Assembly (NCBI GenBank): GCA_026075535.2
Contig: AP026539.1
Coordinates: 9,672,001 to 9,736,000, forward strand
Direction of reading: 5' to 3'
Length of the DNA stretch: 64,000 nt
From: Tricholoma matsutake
Taxonomy: Eukaryota; Basidiomycota; Agaricomycetes; Agaricales; Tricholomataceae
The notes beneath the pieces were generated by a model. That model worked only from the letters and a program-made list of their open reading frames with translations. It was not told where the DNA came from and did no database searches. Below are positions 2,353-64,000 of this stretch, piece after piece (position 1 is the stretch's first letter; every line of letters begins with the position of its first letter). Both the position numbers and the translations under genes were made by a program.

Positions 2353-3436
2353 CTATTTTTTTGGGTCTGCAGAGTCTGGCTTGGACTTGGTGACTTCTGC
2401 AGCATGAGCTTTGGCTGCTTCAGACTTTGGACAATTTCTGGCTCCATGTCCTTTCTTGCCACAGTAGAGGCAAAGTCCTTCTTTTATGTGGCATTCACGC
2501 TCATCTCCGGTTAATTTACCCTCTTTCCCCAACTTGTCAGAAATAGAGTTTTTTGGCTTGTCCCTCTAGAAGTTGTTCTTCGACCCAGAGGAGCTGCCAG
2601 ACAAGGATTGGCTTGAGTGGTTGGTGCTGGATGAGGGCTGGGGTTTTGACTGAGTGTTAGAGTTGGAATTGGAGCAAGGAGAAGCTTTGGATTCCTTTCT
2701 CCTGGGGTTTGCAGAATTCCTGGGAGTTTTTGCTTCTAAGTGGGTTTCTTCTTCCTGCATCCAATAGATGTTGTCAGCATCTTGGGCTTTAAGATGTAGA
2801 GATGCTAGAGTATTGGGTTGTCCCCCCCATGAGAATTCTATGCATAGATGGAGCAGAAGACCATGGAAATACCGGTTGCAAAGAGTGGCCTCATTCCAAT
2901 TGACCCAGGAAGCCAGTTCCCAGAAATCCACATTATACTTCACTTTTCTTCATTGTGAGTTCTGAAAGGGCCTTCTCTGCATCCCCAACAGGGTTGTGAG
3001 GACCAAAATTACTTTCCAACTCACTAAGGAATACCTCATAGTTCCACATCCAATGGGCAGAATTTGTTGGGTCATTGAGTCCAGGTTCAAACCAGCTAAG
3101 GGCTGACCCTTTGAGGTAGGAAAGGATGAATAGGATCTTCTTTTCATTGGAGGCAAAGACCTGAGGACAATTGTGGAAGTGAAGGTTGCATGAGACTAGG
3201 AAGTCCTGAAGTTTCCAGGAGTTAGCCCCATCGAAAGTGTCAGGGTCCCAGACTTTGATCTTTTCAGATTTGGGTGCTTGATTCTGCTGGAGGGTTTGGA
3301 GACTGTCCAAGAGCTCAAAGAGAGCATCAAGGAAGCTATCTCCTGTGTCAGGATTTCTGCCATTGGGAGGTTGAGAGTCATCAGGGTTGTCAGGATTGGG
3401 GTCATCCCACTGGGAAGTCTGTCCTCTTTACCAGAA
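2353..3436 (-). pseudogene. Ty3/Gypsy gag (family G1), 5'-truncated and frameshifted
   Basis: Minus-strand gag homologous to the gag at 14145-15326: the shared core includes KIKVWDPDTFDGAN, LVSCNLHFHNCPQVF, LSYLKGSALSWFEPGLNDPT and NVDFWELASWVNWNEA. A CCHC zinc knuckle (CLYCGKKGHGARNC) lies near 2440-2490, and the gag stop (TAG) is at 2353-2355. The coding is broken near 2940, where two frames must be joined. The N-terminus ends abruptly at about 3436, where the sequence becomes the 5' part of a CRN gene. No LTR or leader is present upstream, so the element lost its 5' end or recombined. Confidence 0.9.
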
Positions 3437-4020
3437 AATCTGGCCAAACAGATCGCGCTTTCCCCAGAGCTTACTATAAATTTCAATGAGCCAGGGTGGC
3501 AGTGAGTTCAGTGAGAGATTCGAATTCTGGGATGAAGATGGTGTGATTGTCGCTAAATAGGGTCATAAACAAGTCAGAATGGCAACGGTTGACACCACGA
3601 GCCATTAGCACTCACTACCAGGCAGACGGGGTAAGATAATGCTTAGAACATCCTCTGCAGGCTCTTCCTTCCAGTAAAACGAGATGCATTTCCATGTCTT
3701 CAACTCCTGACCATCTTCAAGCTTGATACTCTGAGCATAATCTTCACTGAGACTTTCCAGGGGCAGTTGGAACTATTATGAGTTAAGATCTGTGCACCAA
3801 TGCTTATTGACCATTCACTCACCTTCAAAAGTTTCAGGGAGTTGGCAGGGATGTGTTCAAATGATGGCTTCTTCACTCAAATAGTTTCCTTCAGATCATC
3901 CATGGAGGCACTGTGTTTGATTCTAACTGAAAAGATTTGCTCGAGTTCATCGCCTTGGACCCAGCACCATAGGATGATCTCATTGGACATATTCCCCTGT
4001 TGTGTTGAATTGAAGACCTG
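3437..4020 (-). pseudogene. Duplicated CRN gene 5' end, CpG-decayed and fused to gypsy gag
   Basis: The minus strand here matches 27338-27925 almost base for base: 5' untranslated region, start codon (ATG ending at 3990), exon 1, the 50-bp intron 1, exon 2, intron 2 and the first part of exon 3. Introns are retained, so this is a DNA-level duplication, not a retrocopy. Differences are mostly transitions at CpG sites. For example, the CGA at 27479-27481 is TGA here, giving an early stop. Homology ends at about 3436, exactly where gypsy gag begins. The rest of the CRN gene is absent, so this is a pseudogene fragment. Confidence 0.9.
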
Positions 4021-4640: not shown

Positions 4641-5091
4641 GTACCACAATAGATCCACCTAGTGCATGTCACAGGTATGGGTCACTCAATGTCTTCCCAC
4701 ACCCACCACCTGAAACCTGTTCCTACAGGTACTACCTGTGGGTTTGCATCTTCATCATTGTGTCCTCATCCTGTTCCTGTCATCTTGCTGGTTGTCATTG
4801 TCGCTGTCTTCCCGTTGTCATCATGCACTCCGTATGCACCCTGCAAGCAGTTGTTTGCAGTGGTGGGGGGTGCCAGCTGCTCTCCCATGGTCGTGGTCCT
4901 CATGGTCCTCATCCCGTCTCTGATGCTCCCCATTTCCACCCCACAAGCAGGGGATCGTGGTGGTAGTTGGGTGTGCTGTGGTGGTCGTAGTGGCTGTGTG
5001 GTCCCCCAAGTTGTCATCATCAAAAAACTTTGGTTAGTAATGATAAAATGAAAAGACAAAGAAAAAAATACCTAATTTTTTGATGGCATCA
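4641..5091 (-). mobile_element. Palindrome/intron cargo fragment E, cut by gypsy G1
   Basis: This fragment carries the two hallmarks of elements A, B and D: degenerate palindromes (CTGCAAGCAGTTGTTTGCAG at 4841-4860; CCACAAGCAGGGGATCGTGG at 4941-4960) and an intron-like segment on the minus strand (5028-5071). The outer part (4660-4740: TCACAGGTATGGGTC, CACCTGAAACCTG, CTGTGGGTTTG) resembles the decayed MITE end at 51855-51959. The G1 LTR begins at 5092, so the element was interrupted. No coding function is assigned. Confidence 0.55.
5028..5071 (-). other. Spliceosomal-intron-like segment in fragment E
   Basis: Minus strand: a GTATTT donor, a T-rich body, a TTACTAAC branch-like motif and an AAAG end, 44 bp. 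It is weaker than the introns in A and B but has the same design. Splicing is inferred only. Confidence 0.45.
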
Positions 5092-20559: not shown

Positions 20560-20864
20560 TGTTGAAATTAATCCCTGATGCATGCTGTATACATGAGGCA
20601 ATACATGCAGCATACACATGTATACATGAGGCGATACATGCAGCATACGCATGTTACTGCGCTTACTGCGCATACATGCGGTAAACACATTCCCGAGTCA
20701 TGTGACATCCTTAATATTATGTATATAAGGAGAACCTGTACCATAGTAGGAATACAGTGTTCTTACCTCTGCTAACCCTAGCTGTAAGTCTAACTAAACC
20801 CCAGGTAGGTTGTAAGGAACGTGTTGTCTCTTCCCCTGTGCAGCGTATATAGTCTGCTCCAACA
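20560..20864 (+). repeat. Copia 5' LTR
   Basis: TGTTGAAATTAATCCC...CTGCTCCAACA. It contains an internal near-duplication (ATACATGCAGCATACACATG / ATACATGCAGCATACGCATG) and a TATATAAGG promoter box at about 20721-20729. Confidence 0.97.
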
Positions 20865-21114
20865 GGTTATGGGCCCTGCTGGGCACGTCGCGAATGCGCT
20901 TTAATTAGCTGCGAACAACGTAGACTTCATCGTCTCCAAATTTATAACCTTGCGCTCTTTGTGAGCTGCATTGCGCTCCCTGCGAGCTGCATATAAAACC
21001 TAGGTTGACTAGGGTTAACCACTCTGAAGGAGTGTTTTCTCCTAAGAACGTTAAACATGTTTTATTGAGTAAAAAGACTGATTGAGCGCTTTTAACAGCT
21101 GCCACCACAGAATC

Positions 21115-24100
21115 ATGTCTTCAACTCTTGAAAAACTCATTCAAACTTTCGACGGATCAAATTACATTCTATGGGCCGACTCAATGAAGGCGTGGCTCAG
21201 GTCTCAGGGCCTCTGGCAAATAACTAGCGGGGCGGAGCAAAAACCGCCCCCGGCGCCTCCTTTGACGGCGACGAACGCTACCTTGGTAGCGGACGCTAAT
21301 GCCAAGCTCCAGACCTGGAGCAACAAAAACGACCAGGCTATTGGTAGCCTAGTGCTCTGCCTGGCCCCCTCCATTCGGCAGCGTGCCAACACAAAGGACA
21401 CTGCTGAGGAGGTGTGGGTTCTGATTCGCACCGATTATGGTGTGGATGGCCCCTCCCAAGTCTTTTCGGACTTTAGGTCCACAATAACAATCAAAATCCC
21501 GGCTGCGAACCCCGCACCGGAGATTGCAAGAATAGCAGACAAATTTGAGCGCCTCACGGCTGCTAACGTCGCCATCCCCGAGCTAGTACAGGCAATGATT
21601 CTACTTGCTGCGATGCCGCGTGAGTACGACTCATTGTCTGCAACGGTCCTTAACACGACCACCACTAGTGCCTTGACATTTAAACATGTCAAGGACTCCA
21701 TTGTTGCTGAAGCCTCAAGGCGCACAGCAGTTGGAAAGCCCACTGGCCAGCCTCAGGCCAACAAACTTTCCGCTGTTAAGCGCAAGGGGGGAAACCCCAA
21801 ATGGCAGCCCAAAGAAGGGCAAAACAGCAACGGAGACTCGTCCCGAAAATGTGGACGACGTGGGGACAGAAAGACTAAGGAGGAGAAACCAAAGGAGAAA
21901 CATACCCACCTCGCCTCCAATGCCTTTACCACCATAAATGGTAATGGCACCATCATACCGCCGATGCCGCTCATACAGCGCATCGAGCGACGTGAACACA
22001 CTCCCACAAGGGATCCTCGCCGCCGACCGCCTGCACAGGCATACACGGGCACGGCCTCCTCTTCTCGCTCGGTTTATACCAAATACCAGCAAGCTCGAGA
22101 CACCCTCGAGCGCATGCAACTTCCGCACAGCGCGAAAAACCTGCGACCGCTGGAAGAGCACCTTATGGTGCGAGAAGGTAAGAGAAGGAGGATAGAGCCA
22201 GAAACCGAGGCAACGATCGAGGAGGTAGAAGACGATACCATCTCCCTCGGATCTGAACCTCCAGTAACTGATGAGGAAGTGTGGAAAGCCATTGATGAAA
22301 TGCTCGTCGATGAACCCCTTGACACAGGGGCGTATGATGACAGGTCAGTCCTTTTCCCTGCCACAAGCACTAAGATTAAAATTCCTATGAATACAGCAAA
22401 CTTTTCATGTGAAATTTTACCGCTATTAAATGTATCATGGAATTATGTAGATCTTAATATATGTGCTATGTGTGCAAAGGGAGATTGTAAGAAAGGTGCC
22501 GACTGGATCATAGATTCAGGCGCATCAAAACACTTCACTGGTGAAATGAAAGATTTCGCTTCTTACGAGCCTTTACCGAGAAAGGACTCTACCTTGGTCC
22601 AAACGGCCACTGGTACTACTCATATAGTAGGAAAAGGAGCAGTCTTCATTAGGCACCAGGTAGTATGTAATGGGAAGTCAGAGACGCGTGAAACGCGACT
22701 ATACCCCGTCTACTACATACCCGACATTAATACTCGATTGATGTCAATGGGGGTCTTTTTACAAGACGGAAGTGATGTGCGTGGTTCCTCCGCATACATT
22801 TCATTCATCGAGCATGGAAACCCAATCATGCATTGTGTCCCTCTAAGGAGGAATGACACGATCTATTGGGCTCGGACTCATATATTGAGCACCAAAAAGG
22901 TTAATGTTGCGACCATTTATGTCGCTGACTACTTGACTTGGCATAGGCAACTTGGACACCCATCCAAAGAGGCGCTAGGGAAAATGCCTAAAAGCACCAT
23001 AAAATTCCCAAGGAATTTAATTATTCCTAAAGACAAAATTATATGTCCAGGGTGTGCAGAAGGGAAAATGACCTCAAAATCTTTTCCCGAGTCAGACTCA
23101 CGAGCTGACAAATCCTTTGAATTAATACATTCCGACCTAAAGGAACTCCTGGTACTATCGTACCACAAACATAAATACTTCATTGTATTTCTGGATGACA
23201 AAACGTCACATATTTGGGTCCAATGCCTTAGAAAGAAATCTGACGCTGCTGCAGCGATTAGACAATTTCAAGCGATGGCTAAGACCCAATATGGCGCTAC
23301 AATCAAGCGCTGGCGTGTCGATCCAGGGGGGGAGTTCAAGGATCGTGAGCTACAAAAACAGCTCAAGGATTTAGGCATCAAAATAGAGATGTCTGCACCC
23401 CACGTTCATCAACAGAACGGGCGCGCAGAGCGCGCCATAAGGACAATAATGGAAAAGTCGCAAACCCTGCGATTCACCACTTGTCTACCACAATCATGGT
23501 GGGAATTTTGCATAGAACATGCAACACATTTATACAACCGAACCCCAATAAGGCACCTGAAATGGCTGACACCTTTTGAGGACCTGACAAAGGTCCGCCC
23601 AGATCTAAACAATCTGAAGGTCTTCGGTTGCGGTGCTTATGTCTATCTACCAAAGGAAAAACGTCCAACAACATTGTCTCCTCGATCGGAGCTAATGACG
23701 TACCTTGGAGTAGAAGATGGCATTAAAGCATATCGTTTCATGCGACGAAACGGCGCAATATTCATTGGTGCTATGGCACTATTTGATGAAACGATGTTCC
23801 CATGCTGTCCCGGAGCTAAAACTCCTGCCAAGACAGACCTTGGTGATTTTCCACCAGAACCAGAAGATGATGACCACTCATCTGGAACGGATGGTGATGA
23901 CCCTATACCGCCACAAAATCCGCCCCTTCCTCCATCATCAGAAGATGATGATGATGATTTACCAAGCAAGCAAAAGGCGCATGACAATGCGACTAACGCT
24001 CCTCCTCCACCACCTCCAGTTAGCACTGAGGACTTTCATCCAAGACGTGAAGATCAACAGGAATGGCAGCAATTGCCCCGTCGATCAGGCAGGCAGAGGA

Positions 24101-25969
24101 AAATCCCAAACTGTCCCGGCAATACCTATGGAGAACAGCGACTCCCCTCTGACATAGAGAGAGACATTGCGCGTGATCGATATTGGAAGAAGTCTGTGGG
24201 TCAAGATTCGGATCATAACCGAACATGACCACAACCTCAACAGCAAGAACCGGTTACTGGACCGAGTTCGGCACCCCATGAGAGTGTGCCCGATTCCAAT
24301 AATCAAGAACATGATCACCCAATGGGGGAACCAGACGAAGCAGGTTATATTAAAAAGATAACCAAGGAAGGTGGAGATGAGCTTATCCGCTGGCTGTTGT
24401 CAAAAGCAGTCACACCATCAAGCGGAAAAAGCCTAGTTCCAAACCAATTTCGCAATATTGCGCGCCTACCCCGGCAGCAGCAACTTGAGTGGAAACAGGC
24501 TTGTCGTGAAGAGTTAGAGGCTCTTCGCAAGCGACAAGTCTATGACATCGTCGATCTTCCACATGATCGAAAAACGATCAAAAATAGATGGGTTTTCTCT
24601 GTGAAATCGGACGGAAGAAAACGAGCCAGACTCGTGGCCAAAGGCTTTTCACAAGTCGAAGGCGTTGACTTTGATGAGATTTTCTCACCAGTAGTCCACT
24701 ACGAGACCGTACGCCTCATGTTTGCCCTTGCGTCTCTAGAAGGCATGTATATGACCGGTCTAGATGTAAAAACCGCATTTTTATACGGCAAACTTGATGA
24801 GGAGATCTATATGGATCAACCCGAGGGTTTCAAACTCGAGGGTAAAGAGCGCAAAGTAATGCGCTTACGCCGAGCATTGTATGGCCTTAAACAGGCTTCA
24901 CTAGCATGGTGGAGAGAGCTAGAGGCATTTATGCGCACCATTGGGTTCGTGCACGCCAGCTCCGATGCCGGCATCTTCATACACAAGGATCCTAAGACAG
25001 GCAGCATCGTTATTGCGCTAGTCTATGTTGATGATGGCTTGTTCATGGGCAAGAACAAGAAACTTGTGGATGAAAAGAAGAATGCTTGCCTGAAGCATTG
25101 GGAGTGCCATAGTACTGAAAAAGTCACGGAATTCTTAGGCATGCGCGTCACCCAGACTGCTGCAAAAGTCAAACTCGATCAAACAGAATATCTCGCCAAA
25201 GTGCTTGAGAGGTTCGAGATGACAAATGCCAAGATTGCCCCCACTCCGCTCCCGACTGGCTACAAACCGTCGGAGAACACAGCGACGCCAAACACGGCGC
25301 TTAGATCAAAATATCAGTCTGTAATCAGATCTTTATTGTATCTGATGCTCAGAACGCGACCTGATATCGCTTACGTGGTAATCAAGATGTCGCAATTCTC
25401 GGCTAATCCTAGCCAAGAACATCTAGACAAAGCAATGTACATAATGCGCTATCTGGTGGGAACCCAGAAGTACAGTATGGTCTATGATGGAGAGAAATCC
25501 GAGGGGCACAGATTCTGATTGGGCAGCTGACACAGTCAAGCGCCGATCTACAACGGGTTACTTTGCTACTCTGGCGAGTGGCATTGTGTGCTGGCAGTCC
25601 CGTTTACAAAAAACTGTAGCACTGTCATCCACAGAAGCTGAATACATGGCTCTCTCCGACACTTGTCGGCAGATAGTGTGGATAGAGTCCTTATTCCAGG
25701 AACTTGGATATACACTGAAGCGCGTACCAATCTGCGCTGATAATCAAGGATCCATCTTTATTGGATCAAATCCAGTTCAGGAAAGAAGGACCAAACATAT
25801 AGACATTCGCTACCACTACACCCGCGAATGCATAGAAAATGACAAAGTCACAGTCGTTTTCATTCCTGGAAGTGATAATCCGGCTGACATGTTCACAAAG
25901 AACCTTGGTGCCATCCTATTCAGGAAATTTAGAGACTCTCTCGGAATTACTTTCGAGATTCAAACTTAG
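21115..25969 (+). pseudogene. Copia Gag-Pol polyprotein (one TGA, one frameshift)
   Basis: The ATG at 21115 (MSSTLEKLIQTFDGSNYILW) opens a gag of UBN2 type; no clear CCHC knuckle is visible. Then follow protease (WIIDSGASKHFTG, about 22500), a GAG-pre-integrase segment (WHRQLGHPS), integrase (HSDLKELL; VDPGGEFKD; QQNGRAERA), RT (WVFSVKSDGRKRARLVAKGF; YVDDGLF near 25026), and RNase H (TDSDWA, STEAEYMAL, HIDIRYHYTRE), in the copia order with integrase before RT. One TGA at 24226 interrupts the frame, and a 1-base shift just before 25503 separates RT from RNase H. At 1,600+ codons the length is normal for a single-ORF copia element. It is nearly intact. Confidence 0.95.
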
Positions 25970-26001: not shown

Positions 26002-26306
26002 TGTTGAAATTAATCCCTGATGCATGCTGTATACATGAGGCAATACATGCAGCATACACATGTATACATGAGGCGATACATGCAGCATACGCATGTTACT
26101 GCGCTTACTGCGCATACATGCGGTAAACACATTCCCGAGTCATGTGACATCCTTAATATTATGTATATAAGGAGAACCTGTACCATAGTAGGAATACAGT
26201 GTTCTTACCTCTGCTAACCCTAGCTGTAAGTCTAACTAAACCCCAGGTAGGTTGTAAGGAACGTGTTGTCTCTTCCCCTGTGCAGCGTATATAGTCTGCT
26301 CCAACA
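26002..26306 (+). repeat. Copia 3' LTR
   Basis: Identical by eye to 20560-20864; followed by AATCC. Confidence 0.97.
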
Positions 26307-39423: not shown

Positions 39424-39761
39424 TTTTTGGAGCCCACCGTGAGGGATTCTGAATCATTTCATTGTCAAACCAATCTTGACTTCCTTGGCTTAGGCCAACA
39501 ACACAACCTAGAAACCTTCATATTGATACTTGCCACACCTTCGAATCTCTTGAACAATTGAGGTCTTTACACTCCCCCCCCCAATCCGAGCAGACTCTGC
39601 TTGGACACTCGGACAGTCTCAGGACTGTCCGAGGACTTTGCTCGGACTTTGCTCAGACTTCTTTGGCTGAAAGTCCTGCCAAACTAAATGTCCAGTCCAA
39701 GCTGAGTCCAAGCTGAGTCCTCGGACTGTCCGAGTTGCTTATATAATTGACTGAAAAATCA

Positions 39762-39844
39762 GTGGCTACCACAGGGATTGAACCCTCATAGTCACATGAT
39801 AAAGTACAATTAAGTCAGCAATATAACAGTTAGGCTAAAGCTTC
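39762..39844 (-). other. tRNA-like module, left end of A
   Basis: Minus strand: A-box-like TAGCCTAACTG (39827-39837) and B-box GGTTCAATCCC (39774-39784), in the right order and distance for an internal Pol III promoter. TCATGTGA lies between. Cloverleaf pairing is only partial, so it is tRNA-derived rather than a functional tRNA. Confidence 0.65.
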
Positions 39845-39980
39845 ATTACAGACAGGTAGTTATATCTCTCTATGTACTGCCTGGCTGTGATGACAAATCA
39901 ACACAGCTGCATCATCAACAATGCTGGCAATGGTGCCACCTCCTCCTTACCTCCTACCCCAATAACCAACAATGGGAACA

Positions 39981-40010
39981 AGCCCAAATGATGGCATTGT
40001 CGTTTGGGCT
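39981..40010. repeat. GCCCAAA hairpin A1
   Basis: AGCCCAAATGA...TCGTTTGGGCT inverted repeat, ending 5 bp before the donor of the intron-like segment at 40016. Confidence 0.8.
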
Positions 40011-40015
40011 CACTT

Positions 40016-40078
40016 GTAAGTCTTTTTTTACATGATTTTTGTTGTTTTGTTTAACTAACTGAATTTTCCTTATGATAG
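40016..40078 (+). other. Intron-like segment A-i1
   Basis: GTAAGT donor, TTAACTAAC branch-like motif, TATGATAG acceptor, 63 bp. Confidence 0.65.
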
Positions 40079-40164
40079 GTTTTATCTATGTTATAACGAC
40101 ACCACAGCCTCAAAACCACGACAACGGCTGACACAGCCACCACCCTAGGTCCCAGAACCACCGC

Positions 40165-40185
40165 CGCAAGCAACTGCTTGCAGGG
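40165..40185. repeat. Short palindrome A-p1
   Basis: CGCAAGCAACTGCTTGCAGG: AGCA-N2-TGCT core with paired flanks. It is followed by GGTGGGAATGGGT. Confidence 0.8.
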
Positions 40186-40349
40186 TGGGAATGGGTACAA
40201 CTGCAAAACAGCAAGATGATGGCGATGCTGACTTGGCCGAATGGAACAACAATGCAACGAGGCGACTGGAGACAACTGGGACTGGGAGATGGAATGACGA
40301 GGGGCCAAGCAGGAAACAATGAAAGGAAGGCAAAGCAAACGAAGAAAAG

Positions 40350-40381
40350 GCCCAAGAGACGTCATTTGATGTCTCTTGGGC
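40350..40381. repeat. GCCCAAGAGAC hairpin A2
   Basis: GCCCAAGAGACGTCA...TGATGTCTCTTGGGC, an almost perfect inverted repeat lying 5 bp upstream of the next intron-like donor. Confidence 0.85.
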
Positions 40382-40386
40382 TGTTG

Positions 40387-40431
40387 GTAAGTTTTTTTTT
40401 CTTGTTTTTGTTACTAACAAACTTTTTTTAG
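40387..40431 (+). other. Intron-like segment A-i2
   Basis: GTAAGT, perfect TACTAAC branch motif, T7AG acceptor, 45 bp. A textbook fungal intron by sequence. Confidence 0.75.
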
Positions 40432-40485
40432 GTATTATCTAGTACTGCTGACGACGACGATGATGACGAGCACTCAGTACCACTG

Positions 40486-40686
40486 CCATGAGCAGCTGCT
40501 CATGGGGTGGGAATGGGTGCAACTTCGACAAGAATGGCTACTCATGCCCACCACGCAGGACAGGACACACCACCTGCCTCCAGCCTCACAAGCAACTGCT
40601 CGTGGGGTAGATGGTGCATGGAATGATGACGATGGCATGGAATGATGACAGCACCCACTCCAGCCCTATGAGCCACTGCTCGTAGG
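40486..40686. repeat. Three short palindromes A-p2 to A-p4
   Basis: CCATGAGCAGCTGCTCATGG (40486-40505), CACAAGCAACTGCTCGTGG (40587-40605) and CTATGAGCCACTGCTCGTAG (40666-40685), about 80-100 bp apart, each followed by GGTGG or GGTAG. Arm changes are often compensated on the other arm. Confidence 0.8.
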
Positions 40687-40724
40687 GTGGATGTTGGGTG
40701 GAACGATGACGATTAGGGTCCTAG

Positions 40725-40781
40725 GTAAGTTTTTTTTTTCTTTTCTCATTTCATTTTTCGATCCTAACTAACTTTTTATAG
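40725..40781 (+). other. Intron-like segment A-i3
   Basis: GTAAGT, CCTAACTAAC, TTTTTATAG, 57 bp. Confidence 0.72.
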
Positions 40782-40833
40782 TTACAAACTACTACTGGCG
40801 ATGACAATGACAATGACACCACCACCACCACTG

Positions 40834-41099
40834 CTGCAAGCCCCTGCTCGCAGGGTGGAAGGTGAGGGGGAAGAGATGAGGGGGAAGGAGACGAGAGGGA
40901 AGGGAGACGAGAGGGAAGGGAGACGAGAGGGAAGGGAGATGACGACGAGAGTGGGGACACCCATGATGACACCCACCCCATGCCTACAAGCATCTGCTTG
41001 TGGGGTGGTTCGGGGGGGAGAAGAATGGGGACAGGAGAGCAAGACGGCCAGGGGACGACCTGGGGAGAGATGAACACCGCCACGAGCAACTGCTCGTGG
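40834..41099. repeat. Three short palindromes A-p5 to A-p7
   Basis: CTGCAAGCCCCTGCTCGCAG (40834-40853), CTACAAGCATCTGCTTGTGG (40983-41002) and the perfect-armed CCACGAGCAACTGCTCGTGG (41080-41099). Between them is a GAGGGAAGGGAGAC purine array (40860-40940). Confidence 0.8.
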
Positions 41100-41305
41100 T
41101 GGGTGTTTTTAATTTATTTTTATAATTGATAGTTACAGCCCCCTCCCCTCGAGCTTGCGAGGGGAGGGCTTAGTATTATACATATTAATTACCCATATTA
41201 ATTACCCCTCGCACAGATGCAAGGGGGTCAATTTAATAATCTATTCATGATATATAACAAATTAGATTTCAGTAAGAAATAGATATAATGTATGTAACTT
41301 TAAAT

Positions 41306-41396
41306 GACTACTTGGCTTAAGTGGTAGAGTGTGCATGTTTTGTTGTCATGTGATTGCTAGTCCAGAAGGCTGTTGGTTCAATTCCTGCTGTGCACA
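41306..41396 (+). other. tRNA-like module, right end of A
   Basis: A-box-like TGGCTTAAGTGG (41313-41324) and B-box GGTTCAATTCC (41375-41385), with TCATGTGATTG between. It faces outward, mirror to the left module. Confidence 0.68.
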
Positions 41397-41922
41397 CATC
41401 ATTTTGTGAGACTTATAAGACTTTCTCTAAGACTGGAACTCGGACTTTACTTGGTCAGTACTTTAAAAGGTGTAAATAAATGCACAATTGATGTTGTCTG
41501 AGCAAAGTCTGAGTGCAGTCTGAGTGCAGTCCTCAGACTTTACTCGGACAACTAGGACAGTCTGAGTGTCCGAGCAGAGTCCAAGCAGAGTCCGAGTGAA
41601 GTCCTCGGACAGTCCGAGTGAAGTCCTCGGACAGTCCGAGTGAAGTCCTCGGACAGTCCGAGTGTCCAAGTGTATCTGAGCGGAGTCTGCTCGGACTGGG
41701 GAGTGTAAAGTACTGGAACAATCAGGAGATATTCTAATTCCTGTTTCCGAAGCAGAATCTACTCATCATAGACTATTCCCCTCACCTATTTCATCACCTT
41801 CAACATCATCATCTACTTCTTCGTCCTCATCATCAACCTCTTCATTCATTCTTCCAACAACTTTGACACCTCTACCATCCTTCACCCAAGTCTAAACCCC
41901 TACCCCTAGAGTCATCGCATTC

Positions 41923-54132: not shown

Positions 54133-54174
54133 CATGGGAGTCCAATGCTGTAATTTACCCTCCCCCACCTATTC

Positions 54175-54335
54175 CGGTCAGAGTCCAGTTATTCCAGTTG
54201 GAGTCCAGTTATTCCAGTTGGAGTCCAGTTATTCCGGTTGGAGTCCAATTATTCCAGTCAGAGTCCAGTTATTCCGATTGGAGTCCAGTTATTCTGGTCG
54301 GAGTCCAGTTATTCCAGTTATTCCAACCAGATTCT
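54175..54335. repeat. Subterminal 20-bp array in B
   Basis: About eight tandem units of GGAGTCCAGTTATTCCAGTT with variation at the last positions. Possibly transposase-binding sites; inferred from position only. Confidence 0.9.
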
Positions 54336-54431
54336 GGTTACTCCAGATCCTCAACTTAGAGTATATAGCCTAATGGATAGTCAAATTTCAAGTCTTAAGT
54401 TGTCAAAGTGCCTACAAAATATATTTGTGCA

Positions 54432-54518
54432 GAGTAAGGATTGAACTCAAGACATCTTGATTAGAGTGATCACATGACAAACCAAACATGTGTGCTTAAC
54501 CAGTTGAGCCACAGGAGA
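54432..54518 (-). other. tRNA-like module, left end of B
   Basis: Minus strand: A-box TGGCTCAACTGG (54500-54511), GTCATGTGATCA between, B-box GAGTTCAATCC (54438-54448). It shares CATGTGA with both modules of A. Confidence 0.7.
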
Positions 54519-54559
54519 ATTATTAGGTAGTAATATAATGTTTATTCATGACACTCTAA

Positions 54560-54860
54560 TTTTTTTTGAAGTAGTTAAGATCAAATTTTTTTAATTAACC
54601 ACATCCCTCACATTGAATGCGAGGGAGTGGGGATAATTGTAATTATATACATAAACAAAAAATCCTCCCTCTCACAAGATGCAAGAGGGAGTTTTATTTA
54701 TATACATAAAAAGCTAACCCCTCCCGCCGAACGCGAGGGGGGAGGTAAAAACATGAAGAAAAAAATCCCTCCCCCACGCAAAACAGGGGAGGGGGGGCAC
54801 AATACTAATAAATAATTAAAAATACAAAAAAAATCCCTCCCCACACAAAGTGTGGGGGAG
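54560..54860. repeat. TCCCTC / GAGGGG stem-rich stretch in B
   Basis: Alternating CCCTCCC and GAGGGGG blocks (for example CTAACCCCTCCC at 54715 with CGCGAGGGGGGAGG at 54731) create repeated short hairpins. Element A has the same motif at 41138-41168 (CCCCTCCCCTCGAGCTTGCGAGGGGAGGG). Confidence 0.6.
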
Positions 54861-54912
54861 GGGGAGGGGATGCAACCCCACTGTTGTCTGTCCTTCCACC
54901 CATGATCCACCC

Positions 54913-55183
54913 CACGAGCAGTTGCTCGTGAGGCTGGGGGCGGGTGGTGCATTGTCATCTCCTATCCCTGCACCTGGGTGCCGTTCCACCCATGTTCCAC
55001 CCCACAAGCAGTTGCTCGTGAGGCTGGGGGTGGGTGGCTTGTCGTTGTTGTTGTTCCACCCGCGATCCACCCCATGAGCAGTTGCTCGTGAGGCTGGGGG
55101 TGGGTGGTGTATCATTGTCATCTCCTGTCCCTGTGCCTGGGCGCCGTTCTACCCACGTTCCACCCCACGAGTAGTTGCTCATG
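54913..55183. repeat. Four short palindromes in B
   Basis: CACGAGCAGTTGCTCGTG (54913-54930), CACAAGCAGTTGCTCGTG (55003-55020), CATGAGCAGTTGCTCGTG (55073-55090) and CACGAGTAGTTGCTCATG (55166-55183), each inside a 70-93-bp unit with AGGCTGGGGGTGGGTGG. Same core as in A. Confidence 0.88.
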
Positions 55184-55493
55184 AGGCTGGGGGTGGGTGG
55201 CTTGTCGTCGTTTGTCGCTGTCATCCCCTGTCTGAATTTCTGTTTTTTTCTTTTTTTTGGGGGAGGGGGGGGGGGGTTTGGGCACGTCAGTGCGACATGA
55301 CATGGGTACAGAAGTTGGTGGGTGCTTCCTAGGCAGGTACCCCCCTTCCAGGGTCTCTTGGCATCCCTCTGCACCCTCCTAGCCCGTGTCGACAGCCTCA
55401 CATCCCATTTGAATGGGGAGGAGGGGATCAGGTGGGCGTGGGCATGGGTTGCGCATTTTTCGTCGTGGCAGGTCGTCCCCAGCAGTATACAAC

Positions 55494-55538
55494 CTAAAAA
55501 GCAATAAATTACAATTAGTTAGTTTATAAAAAACTCAC
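55494..55538 (-). other. Intron-like segment B-i1
   Basis: Minus strand: GTGAGT, ACTAACTAA, CTTTTTAG, 45 bp, preceded by a GGGCCC hairpin (55542-55576). Confidence 0.72.
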
Positions 55539-55541
55539 ATA

Positions 55542-56026
55542 GGGCCCAAACAACACAATCTGCATTGTTTGGGCCCGTGTTGGCTCGTTTGTGGGTGGTG
55601 GCATCATTACTAGTAGATTATAACCTAGAAAACTAAAAAAATGAGTTAGTTAGTTTATTAAAACAAAAACCAAATGAAAAAAACTTACATAGGGCCCAAA
55701 CGACGTGATCTGCATCGTTTGGGCCCGTGTTGGCTCGTTTGCGGGTGGTGGCATTGTTACTAGTAGATTATAACCTAGAAAATTAAAAAAATGAGTTAGT
55801 TAGTTTATTAAAACAAAAACCAAATGAAAAAAACTTACGTAGGGCCCAAACGACACGATCTGCGTCGTTTGGGCCCGTGTTGGCTCGTTTGCGGGTGGTG
55901 GCATTGTTACTAGTAGATTATAACCTAGAAAACTAAAAAAATGAGTTAGTTAGTTTATTAAAACAAAAACCAAATGAAAAAAACTTACATAGGGCCCAAA
56001 CGATGCGATCTGCGTCATTTGGGCCC
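55542..56026 (-). repeat. Four hairpin/intron units in B, 150-bp period
   Basis: GGGCCCAAACGA...TCGTTTGGGCCC hairpins lie at 55542-55576, 55692-55726, 55842-55876 and 55992-56026, exactly 150 bp apart. Loop bases differ between units. Intron-like segments (GTAAGT, ACTAACTAAC, TTTCTAG, 64 bp) at 55625-55688, 55775-55838 and 55925-55988 start 3-4 bp after the hairpins on the minus strand. Confidence 0.9.
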
Positions 56027-56295
56027 ACGTTCCGTCCAGTTGGCTCGTTTGAAGGTGGTGGTGATGGTGGCATTGGGCATGGGAATAGTGGTGGTGGGTG
56101 CGCATGCAGTGGTGGTGGTAGAGTGGAGAGGAGGAGGAGGCGGCGTTGGCGACAGTGGTGGTAGTGGTTGTGAGCTGGCAGTCATGTGTCACGTGTCATG
56201 TGTATGCATACTTATCAATTATTCCATTAATGGCTGTGATTAACTACGTACCTTGGTTGGGTAATAAAAGTATTAAATGTATACCAAAGAATAAT

Positions 56296-56360
56296 TGCTT
56301 GGTAGCTCAGTGGTTAAGCGTGCTGTTATGTATGCAGACCCAAGGTCGTGCATTCCGGTT
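56296..56360 (+). other. tRNA-like module, right end of B
   Basis: A-box TAGCTCAGTGGTTAAGC (56303-56319) is excellent; the B-box region GGTCGTGCATTCC (56344-56356) is degenerate. It faces outward, mirror of the left module. Confidence 0.6.
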
Positions 56361-56838
56361 ATTCCAGTTAGTCCGGTTATTCCTGTTATTCCAGTTGTGA
56401 TGAGTCTGGTCAGATTCCGAGGATTCTGGCTGTAAATTGGATCCTTATTCCGACCGGAATTGTGCTGCATAGGGAAAACTACATACAAAAAAAATTCCAC
56501 CGGATTCCAGAAATTCCAGAAATTCCAGCCGGACGAACCGGAATCCAACCAGAATAGGTGGGGGAGTGTAAAGTACTCGTCCAATGTCATGGACCTGATG
56601 TCAAGGGATCACTGTATCACAGCATGTGTGGGAGCGGGTTCAGGTGCATGGAGTTGCCATGCATCAAGGGTGCTTTCCATGGGAAGGGGATCGAACACAT
56701 GTCATCAGCATGCATTGTGGGTGTGTCTGGTGTCAAGGGCATGCCTCAGGCATGAGTCAGGGTGCCTCCTGTCTGGAGGGGATCATCGGGTATGTTGAGG
56801 TCAGTCAGGTTCCATGTGTTACAAGGAAAATTGTAACA

Positions 56839-62272: not shown

Positions 62273-62496
62273 TAGTGTATAAGGGTCCGGTTTGGTCCAG
62301 TTTCTTGACCTCTGAGGGGGTCAACCATGGACCAAGACCAGTCCATCTCGATGCCCAGCTCACCAAGACTGCAACCAAACCAAATAGGACCAGTCCTATT
62401 CAGTTTGGTTGCCTCCAAAAGACCAGTTTTAACCGGTCTTACTGGTGTTTTTTCGAGTATAGCTTAAGTCTATTATATACTAATTACATTTACACA

Positions 62497-62516
62497 CTGC
62501 GAGCAGTTGCTTGCAG
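62497..62516. repeat. Short palindrome D-p1
   Basis: CTGCGAGCAGTTGCTTGCAG, same core as in A, B and E. Confidence 0.85.
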
Positions 62517-62639
62517 CTGTGGTGTATGAGAATGAAAATGAAAATGAAAAACGAAATAGAAAATGAAATAGAAAAAAGAAACAGCCCCACCATCTCACGT
62601 TTGTAGCAAGGGTGGGGTCATTGTGTCGTCCCAGCCATC

Positions 62640-62965
62640 CATTGTCCCCGTGTTTGTCATCCCTGCCATTTGTTGTCCCTGCATTTGTTGTCCCTGCCAT
62701 TAGTTGTCCCTGCGTTTGTTGTCCCCGCCATTCATTCTCCTTGCCATGCATTGTCCCTGCATTCATTGTCCCCATGTTTGTTGTCCCCACCATTCATTGT
62801 CCCTGCCATGCGTCGTCTCCACATTTGTTGTCCCTGTCATTCATCATCCCTGTGTTGTCCATCCCTGTCATCCCCACTGTTTGTTGTCCCCGTTGTCCCT
62901 GCCATTCATTATCCCCATGGTTCATTGTCCCTGCCCTTTGTTGTCCCTGCTATTCACTGTCCCCC
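62640..62965. repeat. TTGTCCCTGCCATT minisatellite in D
   Basis: About 20 degenerate units of 12-15 bp built from (T)TGTCCC(T/C)G and CCATTCAT. Open frames here, in all three plus frames, are artefacts of the repeat. Confidence 0.85.
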
Positions 62966-63086
62966 ATACATCGTCGTCGTTGTCATCCAGAAACAGGCCC
63001 ATTGCCACCCTGCGAGCAGAGGCTCACAGCAGTAATGCAAGGCTTGCATGTGTCATTTGGTATGGGAGCTCATGATCAAAATGCAA

Positions 63087-63150
63087 CTAAAAACAAAGAA
63101 AAAACATGTAGTTAGTAAAAGAAAGAAGAAATAAAACATAAAAAACATAC
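63087..63150 (-). other. Intron-like segment in D
   Basis: Minus strand: GTATGT, TTTACTAAC, TGTTTTTAG, 64 bp. Its donor lies 6 bp after the GGGCCCC hairpin at 63156-63192. Confidence 0.72.
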
Positions 63151-63155
63151 CATAG

Positions 63156-63192
63156 GGGGCCCAAATGATGCTAGGTCGTTGTTTGGGCCCCC
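63156..63192. repeat. GGGGGCCCAAA hairpin in D
   Basis: GGGGGCCCAAATGA...GTTTGGGCCCCC inverted repeat, directly comparable with the hairpins at 55542-56026 in B. Confidence 0.85.
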
Positions 63193-64000
63193 ACTTTGCA
63201 TTTGTTGGTTTGGGTGGTCATGGTTGTGGACCAGGCACAGGATGTCCATCATGCATGAATGTTTGTAATTACAAACAAACACGACAATGCATGTTCATTT
63301 ACTGTAAACAAACATATACAGCTAAGACAAACATGGACAACAACTTCAAAGATACATAAACCCAGACCTCCCCACTTATTCTTGGGGCATCCCCCCTCTC
63401 ATCAGTATATGTATAAGTAACTTTAGTATTTAGGTACATGAATACATAGTTATTTGTGGGTACGAAAAGACCAGTTGAGACCGGTTGAGACCGGTCTTTG
63501 ATCAGTTTTTGTGACTTTTAAATGAGTATCAACTGCTAACTGGACTGCAGGCCATTTTGGATGGACCGAGACCAATGGTTCAGTCTCTTGCAGTTAAGTT
63601 CAGTGATAGGTCCACCTTGTCGTTCAAGCTCAGAAAATCACATCTACGATCGTCGTCGAAGCTCTATGAACCCATATGAACCTCTACAAACCCATACGAA
63701 CCCCTCTGAAGCTCTACAAAGCTCTACAAAGTCACGAGAATGCTTCAAAACCCTTTGCAACGCTTTGAAACTCTTTGCGACACCTCAAAATTCTTTGTAT
63801 GCCTTCGGCTGCTATAGTACAACTCCCCGACCTTCGGACAGCTCGGGATAGACACTTGGAGCATTGTCGACGAGTTCCGAACCAGTATCGAGCAATATCG
63901 CAGTGATATCGGCCTTTGAACAAGTCCAATATTTCCTCGACCGACTTCGAGCATTGTCGAATGCGATCGAGCATCATATTGAATGTGATTGAACATCGTC
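63193..64000. other. Right end of window, no gene recognised
   Basis: 63460-63600 contains GACCGGT words resembling element C. 63655-63790 is rich in CTCTACAAA and CCCATA repeats. 63850-64000 (TCGAGCA, GATCGAGCATCAT) resembles the TCGACAATGGTCGAGG area of G4 LTRs. No ORF is supported. Confidence 0.35.

What the first reader, a model, noticed from the sequence alone, without database searches (positions are those of the whole stretch)
39560..41715. Shared cargo of palindromes and hairpin-plus-intron units in dispersed elements (candidate new system)
Elements A (39560-41715), B (54148-56578), D (62273 onward) and fragment E (4641-5091) share a modular cargo. Fifteen short palindromes have the core AGCA-N2-TGCT with arms that covary (for example CCACGAGCAACTGCTCGTGG, CCATGAGCAGCTGCTCATGG). 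Seven longer hairpins (GGGCCCAAACGA...TCGTTTGGGCCC or GCCCAAGAGAC...) sit a few bases upstream of textbook introns (GTAAGT, TACTAAC, T-rich AG). Primary sequence diverges, but the order hairpin then donor is kept in A, B and D. Arm covariation suggests the structure is conserved in RNA or in single-stranded DNA. No coding capacity explains it. I know of no described element with this design, though that is not proof of novelty.
Basis: partly seen in the sequence, partly recalled or inferred. Interest (0 to 1): 0.88.

Follow-up and report, generated by a model that had tools for sequence, protein, structure and literature searches.

The report
Transposon-borne spliced hairpin RNA cargo
In the matsutake mushroom, unlike families of jumping DNA carry the same non-protein-coding cargo, which looks like a spliced RNA built from hairpins, one kind of which sits three bases before the splice site; its pieces occur in thousands of copies and its job is unknown.

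Summary
Covariance models find 15 palindromes and 7 hairpins on the intron strand in A, B, D and E; apart from reverse-strand shadows nothing else in 64 kb scores below E 0.1. The genome is Tricholoma matsutake, by assembly lengths. Genome-wide the palindrome motif has 6383 hits and the hairpin 1788, 654 followed by GTAAGT; reversed patterns gave 0. In 96 of 100 listed cases exactly 3 nt separate stem and GT. Of 19 hairpin sites, 11 have a palindrome within 1 kb, all downstream on the same strand. Two unlike kinds of transposon end with 8-bp duplications carry this noncoding cargo; D is a probable third. Best reading: non-autonomous hAT-like transposons spreading a structured, spliced noncoding RNA whose exon-end hairpin stops at the edge of the U1-binding site. 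Splicing and RNA structure are inferred; transcription, function and benefit were not tested.

The parts
39560..41715 (+). Element A, non-autonomous TIR element; ends GAGGTCTTTACACTCCC / CAGTACTTTACACTCCC; sense strand +
   Evidence: 8-bp TSD 39552-39559 / 41716-41723 (7 of 8); 10 full-length copies aligned
39774..39837 (-). tRNA-like box A/box B stretch, facing outward
   Evidence: regex hit, found at this end in 9 of the 10 aligned A copies; 33 hits in all (overlaps and L041 counted) against 2 in the reversed control over 282 kb
39980..40022 (+). Hairpin plus donor of intron 1 (GCCCAAATGA..TCGTTTGGGC)
   Evidence: R2 46.7 bits, E 1.1e-10
40016..40078 (+). Predicted intron 1 (GTAAGT..CTAAC..AG)
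40158..40189 (+). Palindrome unit 1
   Evidence: R1 45.6 bits
40348..40393 (+). Hairpin class II plus donor of intron 2 (GGCCCAAGAGAC..GTCTCTTGGGC)
   Evidence: R2 54.6 bits; fold z -6.15
40387..40431 (+). Predicted intron 2
40480..40511 (+). Palindrome unit 2
   Evidence: R1 45.4 bits; fold z -4.42 with outer stem and one-base bulge
40580..40611 (+). Palindrome unit 3
   Evidence: R1 37.3 bits
40660..40691 (+). Palindrome unit 4
   Evidence: R1 48.9 bits
40725..40781 (+). Predicted intron 3; its upstream hairpin, present in most other copies, is missing here
   Evidence: remnant match R2 12.7 bits, E 0.18
40828..40859 (+). Palindrome unit 5
   Evidence: R1 47.2 bits
40978..41009 (+). Palindrome unit 6
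   Evidence: R1 42.1 bits
41077..41103 (+). Palindrome unit 7, CCACGAGCAACTGCTCGTGG
   Evidence: R1 28.5 bits; 38 exact genomic copies; fold z -6.46
41138..41171 (+). C/G-rich hairpin downstream of the palindromes
   Evidence: fold z -3.29
41313..41385 (+). tRNA-like box A/box B stretch, facing outward
   Evidence: found at this end in 8 of the 10 aligned A copies; Rfam tRNA 18.1 bits at 41329-41396, below the gathering score 29
54148..56578 (-). Element B, TIR element, sense strand -
   Evidence: 8-bp TSD GTCCAATG at 54140-54147 and 56579-56586
54717..54871 (-). Three C/G-rich hairpins downstream of the palindromes (54833-54871, 54767-54797, 54717-54746)
   Evidence: positions converted from the reversed piece
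54906..54937 (-). Palindrome unit
   Evidence: R1 48.1 bits
54996..55027 (-). Palindrome unit
   Evidence: R1 45.8 bits
55066..55097 (-). Palindrome unit
   Evidence: R1 45.9 bits
55159..55190 (-). Palindrome unit
   Evidence: R1 36.5 bits
55532..55576 (-). Hairpin plus donor (GTGAGT, read by eye), one of four tandem units of about 150 bp
   Evidence: R2 52.9 bits; tandem array
55682..55726 (-). Hairpin plus donor GTAAGT at 55688
   Evidence: R2 59.0 bits; fold z -6.58; intron
55832..55876 (-). Hairpin plus donor GTAAGT at 55838
   Evidence: R2 58.9 bits; intron
55982..56026 (-). Hairpin plus donor GTAAGT at 55988
   Evidence: R2 60.2 bits; intron
62273..64000 (-). Element D, end TAGTGTAT-AAGGGTCCGG.., far end not found in the window; sense strand -
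   Evidence: start read by eye; end and TSD not established
62491..62522 (-). Palindrome unit of D
   Evidence: R1 31 bits
63006..63034 (-). Palindrome unit of D
   Evidence: R1 32.5 bits
63144..63190 (-). Hairpin plus donor GTATGT of D
   Evidence: R2 45.6 bits; intron
4641..5091 (-).
   Evidence: R1 29.1 and 32.4 bits

Best explanation
These are non-autonomous, terminal-inverted-repeat DNA transposons (8-bp target duplications, hAT-like) of Tricholoma matsutake. Families with unlike ends carry one homologous cargo: a transcription unit for a spliced, structured noncoding RNA. Order in the sense strand: one or more exons that end in a hairpin of about 13-15 bp whose stem closes 3 nt before GTAAGT; short introns with a CTAAC branch site; a last exon with a row of bulged hairpins (the palindromes); then, in most copies, C/G-rich hairpins. 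Mechanism, most likely: the stem ends where U1 snRNA pairing begins (exon position -3), so it cannot swallow the donor and keeps it exposed in an RNA otherwise full of hairpins; introns are removed and a chain of hairpins remains. As a side effect the stem covers the usual exon-junction-complex site (about -20 to -24), so the mature RNA may carry few such complexes. Shown: anatomy, stem-to-donor geometry, copy number, strand and order, two-sided changes between related sequences, no coding capacity found, 8-bp TSDs with two unlike kinds of end. Inferred: transcription, splicing, U1-edge role, exon-junction-complex exclusion, any benefit to the transposon.
For: Fixed geometry: 96 of the 100 listed of 654 GGGCCCAAA..TTTGGGCCC sites have exactly 3 nt before GT though the pattern allowed 0-8. 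In the loci and window, 56 of 71 distinct hairpins, not chosen for a donor, have a donor-like hexamer within 30 nt on either side, 53 of the 56 at the two expected distances. Order and strand: 11 of 19 hairpin sites on the first 2.95 Mb of C1 have a palindrome within 1 kb, 11 of 11 on the same strand and downstream; random placement gives 0.9. RNA strand: departures at palindrome pairs 2-3 are G-U 28, A-C 1; 19 to 7 in loci. Two-sided changes: 34 cells against 14.4 shuffled and 21 against 8.7; 0 of 500 shuffles reach the covariation score in either; slid partners pair in at most 50.1% and 49.6% of cells against 93.4% and 92.1%. Exon starts are alike (GTTNTAA..; T at position 2 in 44 of 44, A at position 6 in 88%). 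ORFs lie within the shuffle 95% limit in 9 of 10 spliced models. TSDs. C/G-rich hairpins lie downstream in 23 of 27 copies, upstream in 1 of 27.
Against: No transcript or spliced read was seen; none can be searched here. Sequences are related, so shuffles overstate independence: two arm combinations give 24 of the 28 G-U cells, and the two measures that the tool calls least misled by relatedness do not exceed shuffles (pairs with two-sided change 5 against 3.7, 90 of 500 as high, and 6 against 4.7, 108 of 500; further pair types 14 against 13.5, 262 of 500, and 12 against 12.3, 386 of 500). Copies of family A look neutral after insertion: 180 of their 355 variable columns are CpG positions (201 of 1630 columns are), and palindrome arms decay there independently. 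In donor hairpins there is no G-U excess (G-U 34, A-C 48 over ten pairs, some rows mis-registered). 15 of 71 hairpins have no donor within 30 nt; 1134 of 1788 genomic hairpins lack an exact GTAAGT within 8 nt. One spliced model (L033) has a 151-codon ORF above its shuffle 95% limit of 112. 4 of 27 copies show no C/G-rich hairpin downstream. The U1 pairing positions and the exon-junction-complex position are recalled.
Confidence: 0.55

Rival explanations
1. The hairpins' main role is downstream of splicing: by filling the exon-junction-complex site and leaving little single-stranded RNA they protect a stop-rich noncoding transcript from nonsense-mediated decay or steer its export.
For: By the lengths listed the hairpin spans exon positions -4 to about -34 to -41; the spliced models have many stops in each frame.
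Against: The fixed 3-nt spacing is tighter than blocking position -20 to -24 would need; the palindromes are not at junctions. Whether this fungus uses exon-junction-dependent decay was not tested.
Confidence: 0.2
2. The cargo is the noncoding leader and trailer of a transposase gene, left behind by internal deletion of autonomous elements, with no role of its own RNA.
For: hAT-dimer domains are common in this genome (151 matches, 150 of 449 candidates scored); one lies about 1.9 kb from a palindrome.
Against: Two unlike kinds of end with proven duplications, and probably D, share it. I did not scan the fetched loci for transposases apart from L042, so absence of a linked transposase is not shown.
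Confidence: 0.2
3. Inverted repeats made and kept by mutation at DNA level (template switching within quasi-palindromes, or extrusion), beside introns of a dead gene.
For: Arms are near-perfect; copies decay as if unselected; no G-U excess in the donor hairpins.
Against: Does not explain the 3-nt distance to the donor, one-strand orientation, or G-U over A-C at palindrome pairs 2-3.
Confidence: 0.12
4. Small-RNA source: the hairpins are processed by Dicer-like enzymes or act as decoys for the silencing machinery.
For: Many hairpins per element, thousands of motif copies.
Against: Stems of 8-15 bp are short for Dicer (recalled); no Rfam family matched in the window at E up to 1.
Confidence: 0.12
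5. Exons of a captured protein-coding gene.
For: Clean spliceosomal intron signals.
Against: Exon 2 of family 2 has stops in all three frames, read by eye in two copies; ORFs are as in shuffles in 9 of 10 models.
Confidence: 0.03

Closest known systems
hAT superfamily, non-autonomous members
   Same: 8-bp target duplications; ends of families 2/3 (TAGGG) and D (TAGTG) fit the recalled hAT pattern YARNG; terminal inverted repeats
   Different: Cargo of introns and hairpins; A and B ends (GAGGT, CAGTA, CTGTA) do not fit YARNG; no transposase tied to these ends
Cargo shared across DNA-transposon superfamilies in fungi (TET/JBP genes; PMC12730594, passages seen)
   Same: One cargo found in unlike transposon families of basidiomycetes, passed passively
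   Different: There a protein gene; here noncoding, apparently spliced and structured
Introner-like elements of fungi (recalled, no call)
   Same: Many similar introns in one genome
   Different: Here introns lie inside transposons and the hairpin is exonic, before the donor
Zisupton/KDZ elements (8-bp TSD of Zisupton: PMC12730594)
   Same: 8-bp duplications; subterminal repeats (recalled)
   Different: No KDZ transposase was looked for
megB1 and marY elements of Tricholoma (PMC10627285, passages seen)
   Same: Repeats known from the same genus
   Different: Alu-like dimer, LTR element and LINE; no hairpin-intron design mentioned in the passages

Membership tests
hAT superfamily | 8-bp target-site duplication | tested here: met
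   B exact; A family: 4 of 10 copies exact, two with 7, two with 6, one with 3 and one with 2 of 8 in register; families 2/3 and other loci: exact in 9 of 16 loci examined, allowing the ends to shift by up to 3
hAT superfamily | TIR beginning YARNG (recalled) | tested here: inconclusive
   TAGGG and TAGTG fit; GAGGT, CAGTA, CTGTA do not
hAT superfamily | hAT transposase in the element or in a partner with the same ends | not tested
   hAT-dimer domains exist in the genome (151 matches) but were not tied to these ends
CACTA/EnSpm | CACTA/G ends and 3-bp TSD | tested here: not met
   CACT lies inside; duplications are 8 bp
Helitron | No TSD, no TIR (recalled) | tested here: not met
   TIRs and TSDs present
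Protein-coding gene fragment | ORF longer than in shuffled sequence, kept across copies | tested here: not met
   9 of 10 spliced models within the shuffle 95% limit; L033 exceeds it, its relatives L024 and L034 do not
Known RNA family (Rfam 15) | Match to a covariance model | tested here: not met
   0 matches at E up to 1 in the window
tRNA / tRNA-derived (end stretches only) | tRNA model above gathering score | tested here: not met
   18.1 bits against 29; ARAGORN 0 in the window and in 33 loci
Spliceosomal intron | GT-branch-AG signals in one strand | tested here: met
Spliceosomal intron | Spliced reads | not testable with these tools
   No RNA data held
Structured RNA | Two-sided changes above shuffled and slid controls | tested here: inconclusive
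   Covariation score and cells with two-sided change exceed all 500 shuffles and all slides; counts of pairs and of pair types do not exceed shuffles; pairs 2-3 exceed 5000 shuffles; relatedness not removed

The most novel reading that the evidence does not exclude
A new class of selfish or useful RNA: a spliced chain of hairpins, selected at RNA level, that has moved as a unit between DNA-transposon families and uses an exon-end stem set exactly against the U1 site to secure its own splicing, with thousands of motif copies in one genome.
Probability: 0.4. Interest if true: 0.9.

Novelty: new variant of a known kind. Interest (0 to 1): 0.78.

Why it matters
If the RNA is made and spliced, this is a noncoding transposon cargo with an architecture for which the searches made (listings) showed no counterpart, in a genome of which 25.4% is unclassified repeat. 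It would give a natural library of more than 600 exon-end hairpins at a near-fixed distance from a splice donor, which makes the question of how RNA structure next to a donor steers U1 binding and exon-junction-complex loading directly testable. It would also show cargo exchange between transposon families for RNA, as is reported for TET/JBP protein genes.

Tried and rejected
CACTA reading of the CACTCCC ends: rejected, duplications are 8 bp. Covariation within hairpin class I as proof of structure: rejected, about 2 sd over shuffles. CpG pairs of the palindromes as proof of covariation: rejected. tRNA genes at the ends: only weakly tRNA-like; my first regex was wrong and found nothing, a looser one found 33 hits. 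The first scan for C/G-rich hairpins was too strict (2 of 27 downstream, 2 of 27 upstream); a looser one, set after seeing that, gave 23 and 1 of 27. Both looked at 27 of the 37 pieces held then; L009, L014, L015, L017, L022, L029, L031, L036, L041 and fragment E were left out. The fold of the L024 piece was mis-cut (z -0.39). Literature: passages of the T. matsutake and T. bakamatsutake papers mention no such element (PMC10211490, PMC6980582, PMC10627285); PMC12730594 was seen in passages only. Exon-junction search gave a listing only; nothing from it is relied on. Other Tricholoma genomes, other fungi and RNA data are not held, so spread beyond this genome was not tested. Wanted but unanswered: counts for NNNGTA spacing and for class II hairpins.
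Full report
What was checked. The window is G000:C2:9672001-9736000. The genome has 161,040,721 bases in 13 contigs; this total, and the lengths of contigs 8 to 13, equal those printed for the telomere-to-telomere assembly of Tricholoma matsutake (PMC10211490, passages seen). The organism is inferred from these lengths.

Palindromes. Twelve strict cores (A/G)AGC-N4-GCT(C/T) occur in the 64-kb window and all twelve lie in A, B or D. A covariance model from 29 palindromes of fetched loci (picked from 90 distinct ones so as to differ by at least 4 letters; none from the window) finds 15 sense-strand units in the window at E<1e-5: A 7, B 4, D 2, E 2; 11 further matches are reverse-strand shadows and one is at E 0.49. 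Each unit is an 8-bp stem with a 4-nt loop that mostly ends in CT in sense, set in an outer stem, typically CCACC/GGTGG, with one bulged base. Genome-wide the exact 20-mer has 38 copies and the degenerate 25-mer CYRYRAGCNNCTGCTYRYRGGGTGG 6383 (3096 plus 3287), with 0 for the reversed pattern.

Where the arms covary. The tool lists the first 100 of the 6383 places; 75 are distinct. Pairs 2-3 form full Watson-Crick dinucleotides in 53 of 75, against 23.5 (sd 3.7, maximum 38 of 5000 shuffles); their departures are 28 G-U and 1 A-C. Pairs 4-5, which hold a CpG, do so in 22 of 75 against 25.4 (sd 4.0), with 38 G-U and 34 A-C. In the fetched loci, 60 distinct arm pairs give 34 against 16.4 (sd 3.3, maximum 28 of 3000) at pairs 2-3 with G-U 19 and A-C 7, and 24 against 19.8 (sd 3.7) at pairs 4-5. 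So the outer pairs change on both sides together while the CpG pairs decay independently on each arm. Against this: two arm combinations supply 24 of the 28 G-U cells, and on the 29-row alignment the two measures least misled by relatedness do not exceed shuffles (5 pairs with two-sided change against 3.7, 90 of 500 as high; 14 further pair types against 13.5, 262 of 500), although cells with two-sided change (34 against 14.4) and the covariation score do (0 of 500). The RNA-strand reading is therefore supported but not proved.

Hairpins and donors. A model from 19 hairpins (15 from loci, 4 from the window) finds 7 sense hairpins in the window: A 2, B 4, D 1. GGGCCCAAA-N8..22-TTTGGGCCC has 1788 places in the genome, 654 of them followed within 8 nt by GTAAGT; both reversed controls are 0. 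With equal base frequencies about 8 would be expected by chance (my arithmetic). In the 100 listed, the distance from stem to GT is 3 nt in 96, 2 in 2, 4 in 1 and 1 in 1. In 34 loci and the window, 71 distinct hairpins taken without regard to donors have a donor-like hexamer within 30 nt on either side in 56; 46 and 7 of these lie at the two expected distances, 3 lie elsewhere, 15 have none. Intron-like stretches near palindromes have a strong hairpin just upstream in 58 of 114 (alternative starts of one intron counted apart) against 5 of 59 elsewhere, and 4 of those 5 are hairpins of the same kind. Class I (AAAYGAY) and class II (AAGAGAC) stems differ in their inner arms yet both pair; 21 cells have two-sided changes against 8.7 in shuffles (covariation score 0 of 500), but pairs with such change (6 against 4.7, 108 of 500) and pair types (12 against 12.3, 386 of 500) do not exceed shuffles. 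Within class I the inner arms agree only slightly more than chance (287 of 440 against 270.6, sd 7.9), and donor hairpins show no G-U excess (34 G-U, 48 A-C).

Order. On the first 2.95 Mb of C1, 19 hairpin-donor sites and 100 palindromes are listed; 11 of 19 sites have a palindrome within 1 kb, all 11 on the same strand and downstream, against 0.9 (maximum 5) for random placement; 31 of 31 neighbouring palindromes within 1 kb share the strand. C/G-rich hairpins follow the last palindrome in 23 of 27 copies, and lie upstream in 1 of 27 (the rule was loosened after a first scan; 27 of 37 pieces were looked at). The exon start after the intron is alike across families, GTTNTAA.. (44 distinct starts).

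Carriers. Family A: 10 full copies, TIR GAGGTCTTTACACTCCC and CAGTACTTTACACTCCC; 8-bp duplications exact in four, 7 of 8 in two, 6 of 8 in two, 3 and 2 of 8 in one each. B: duplication GTCCAATG exact; its ends share TTTAC(A/C)CTCCCCC with A but its subterminal repeats differ. Families 2, 3 and L040: TIR TAGGG.. (or near it), exact 8-bp duplications in 9 of 16 loci examined. L035/L041 have an A-like variant end. D has a TAGTG-type end, read by eye, without a proven far end. L042 and L043 show the cargo in contexts whose ends I did not define. So two unlike kinds of end with proven duplications carry the cargo, and D is a probable third. In family A, 355 of 1630 gap-free columns vary and 180 of the 355 are CpG positions, which make up 201 of the 1630, as expected if copies decay after insertion.

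Coding. In ten spliced models the longest ORF lies within the 95% limit of shuffles in nine; L033 has 151 codons against 112, its relatives L024 and L034 55 and 86. Exon 2 of family 2 has stops in all three frames in two copies read by eye. Rfam gives no match in the window at E up to 1.

Reading. Conserved strand, order, stem-to-donor distance and two-sided changes fit a spliced structured RNA better than DNA palindromes or a dead gene. The 3-nt gap equals the exon part of the U1 pairing site (recalled), so the stem stops at its edge; this points to presenting the donor. The stem also covers the usual exon-junction-complex position (recalled), a rival or added effect. Neither was tested. What the RNA does for transposon or host is open.

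Novelty. The carriers are a known kind, non-autonomous TIR transposons. For the cargo I found no described counterpart in the listings of three full-text searches and in passages of four papers; that is a limited search of open-access papers. The nearest precedent is TET/JBP genes shared by fungal transposon families. I file it as a new variant of a known kind; if the RNA is shown to be made, spliced and structured, the cargo itself would be a new kind.

Noticed in passing
39774-39837 (-) and 41313-41385 (+); B about 54440-54515 (-): tRNA-like stretches with box A and box B face outward near both ends of A; the 3' one of A aligns with one near an end of B (score 39, 0 of 500 shuffles as high), while the other four pairings tried were not beyond shuffles. 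They could be Pol III promoters or boundary elements flanking the cargo.
   Followed up: partly
L035 and L041: The cargo lies in a near-identical (97-99%) block about 34 kb from the start of C12 and about 48 kb from the end of C13, a subtelomeric duplication.
   Followed up: no
L042:3422-3556 and L042:1484-1515: A hAT-dimer transposase match on the minus strand lies about 1.9 kb from a palindrome; the palindrome seems to sit by another element with AAAGCCATGGC-type sequence, read by eye.
   Followed up: partly
20586-20654 and 26028-26096: The same 33-bp tandem repeat at both places flanks long ORFs 21082-25518 that read like a Ty1/copia polyprotein; probably the two LTRs of one element (no family search made).
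   Followed up: no
40700-40730: Intron 3 of A lacks the GACCCAAGAGAC hairpin that most family copies have before this donor: a natural deletion to compare splicing with.
   Followed up: no
L031, L015, L036: Composite stretches: L031 has seven sense hairpins within 2541-3653; L015 and L036 have hairpins on both strands, so units in opposite orientation.
   Followed up: no
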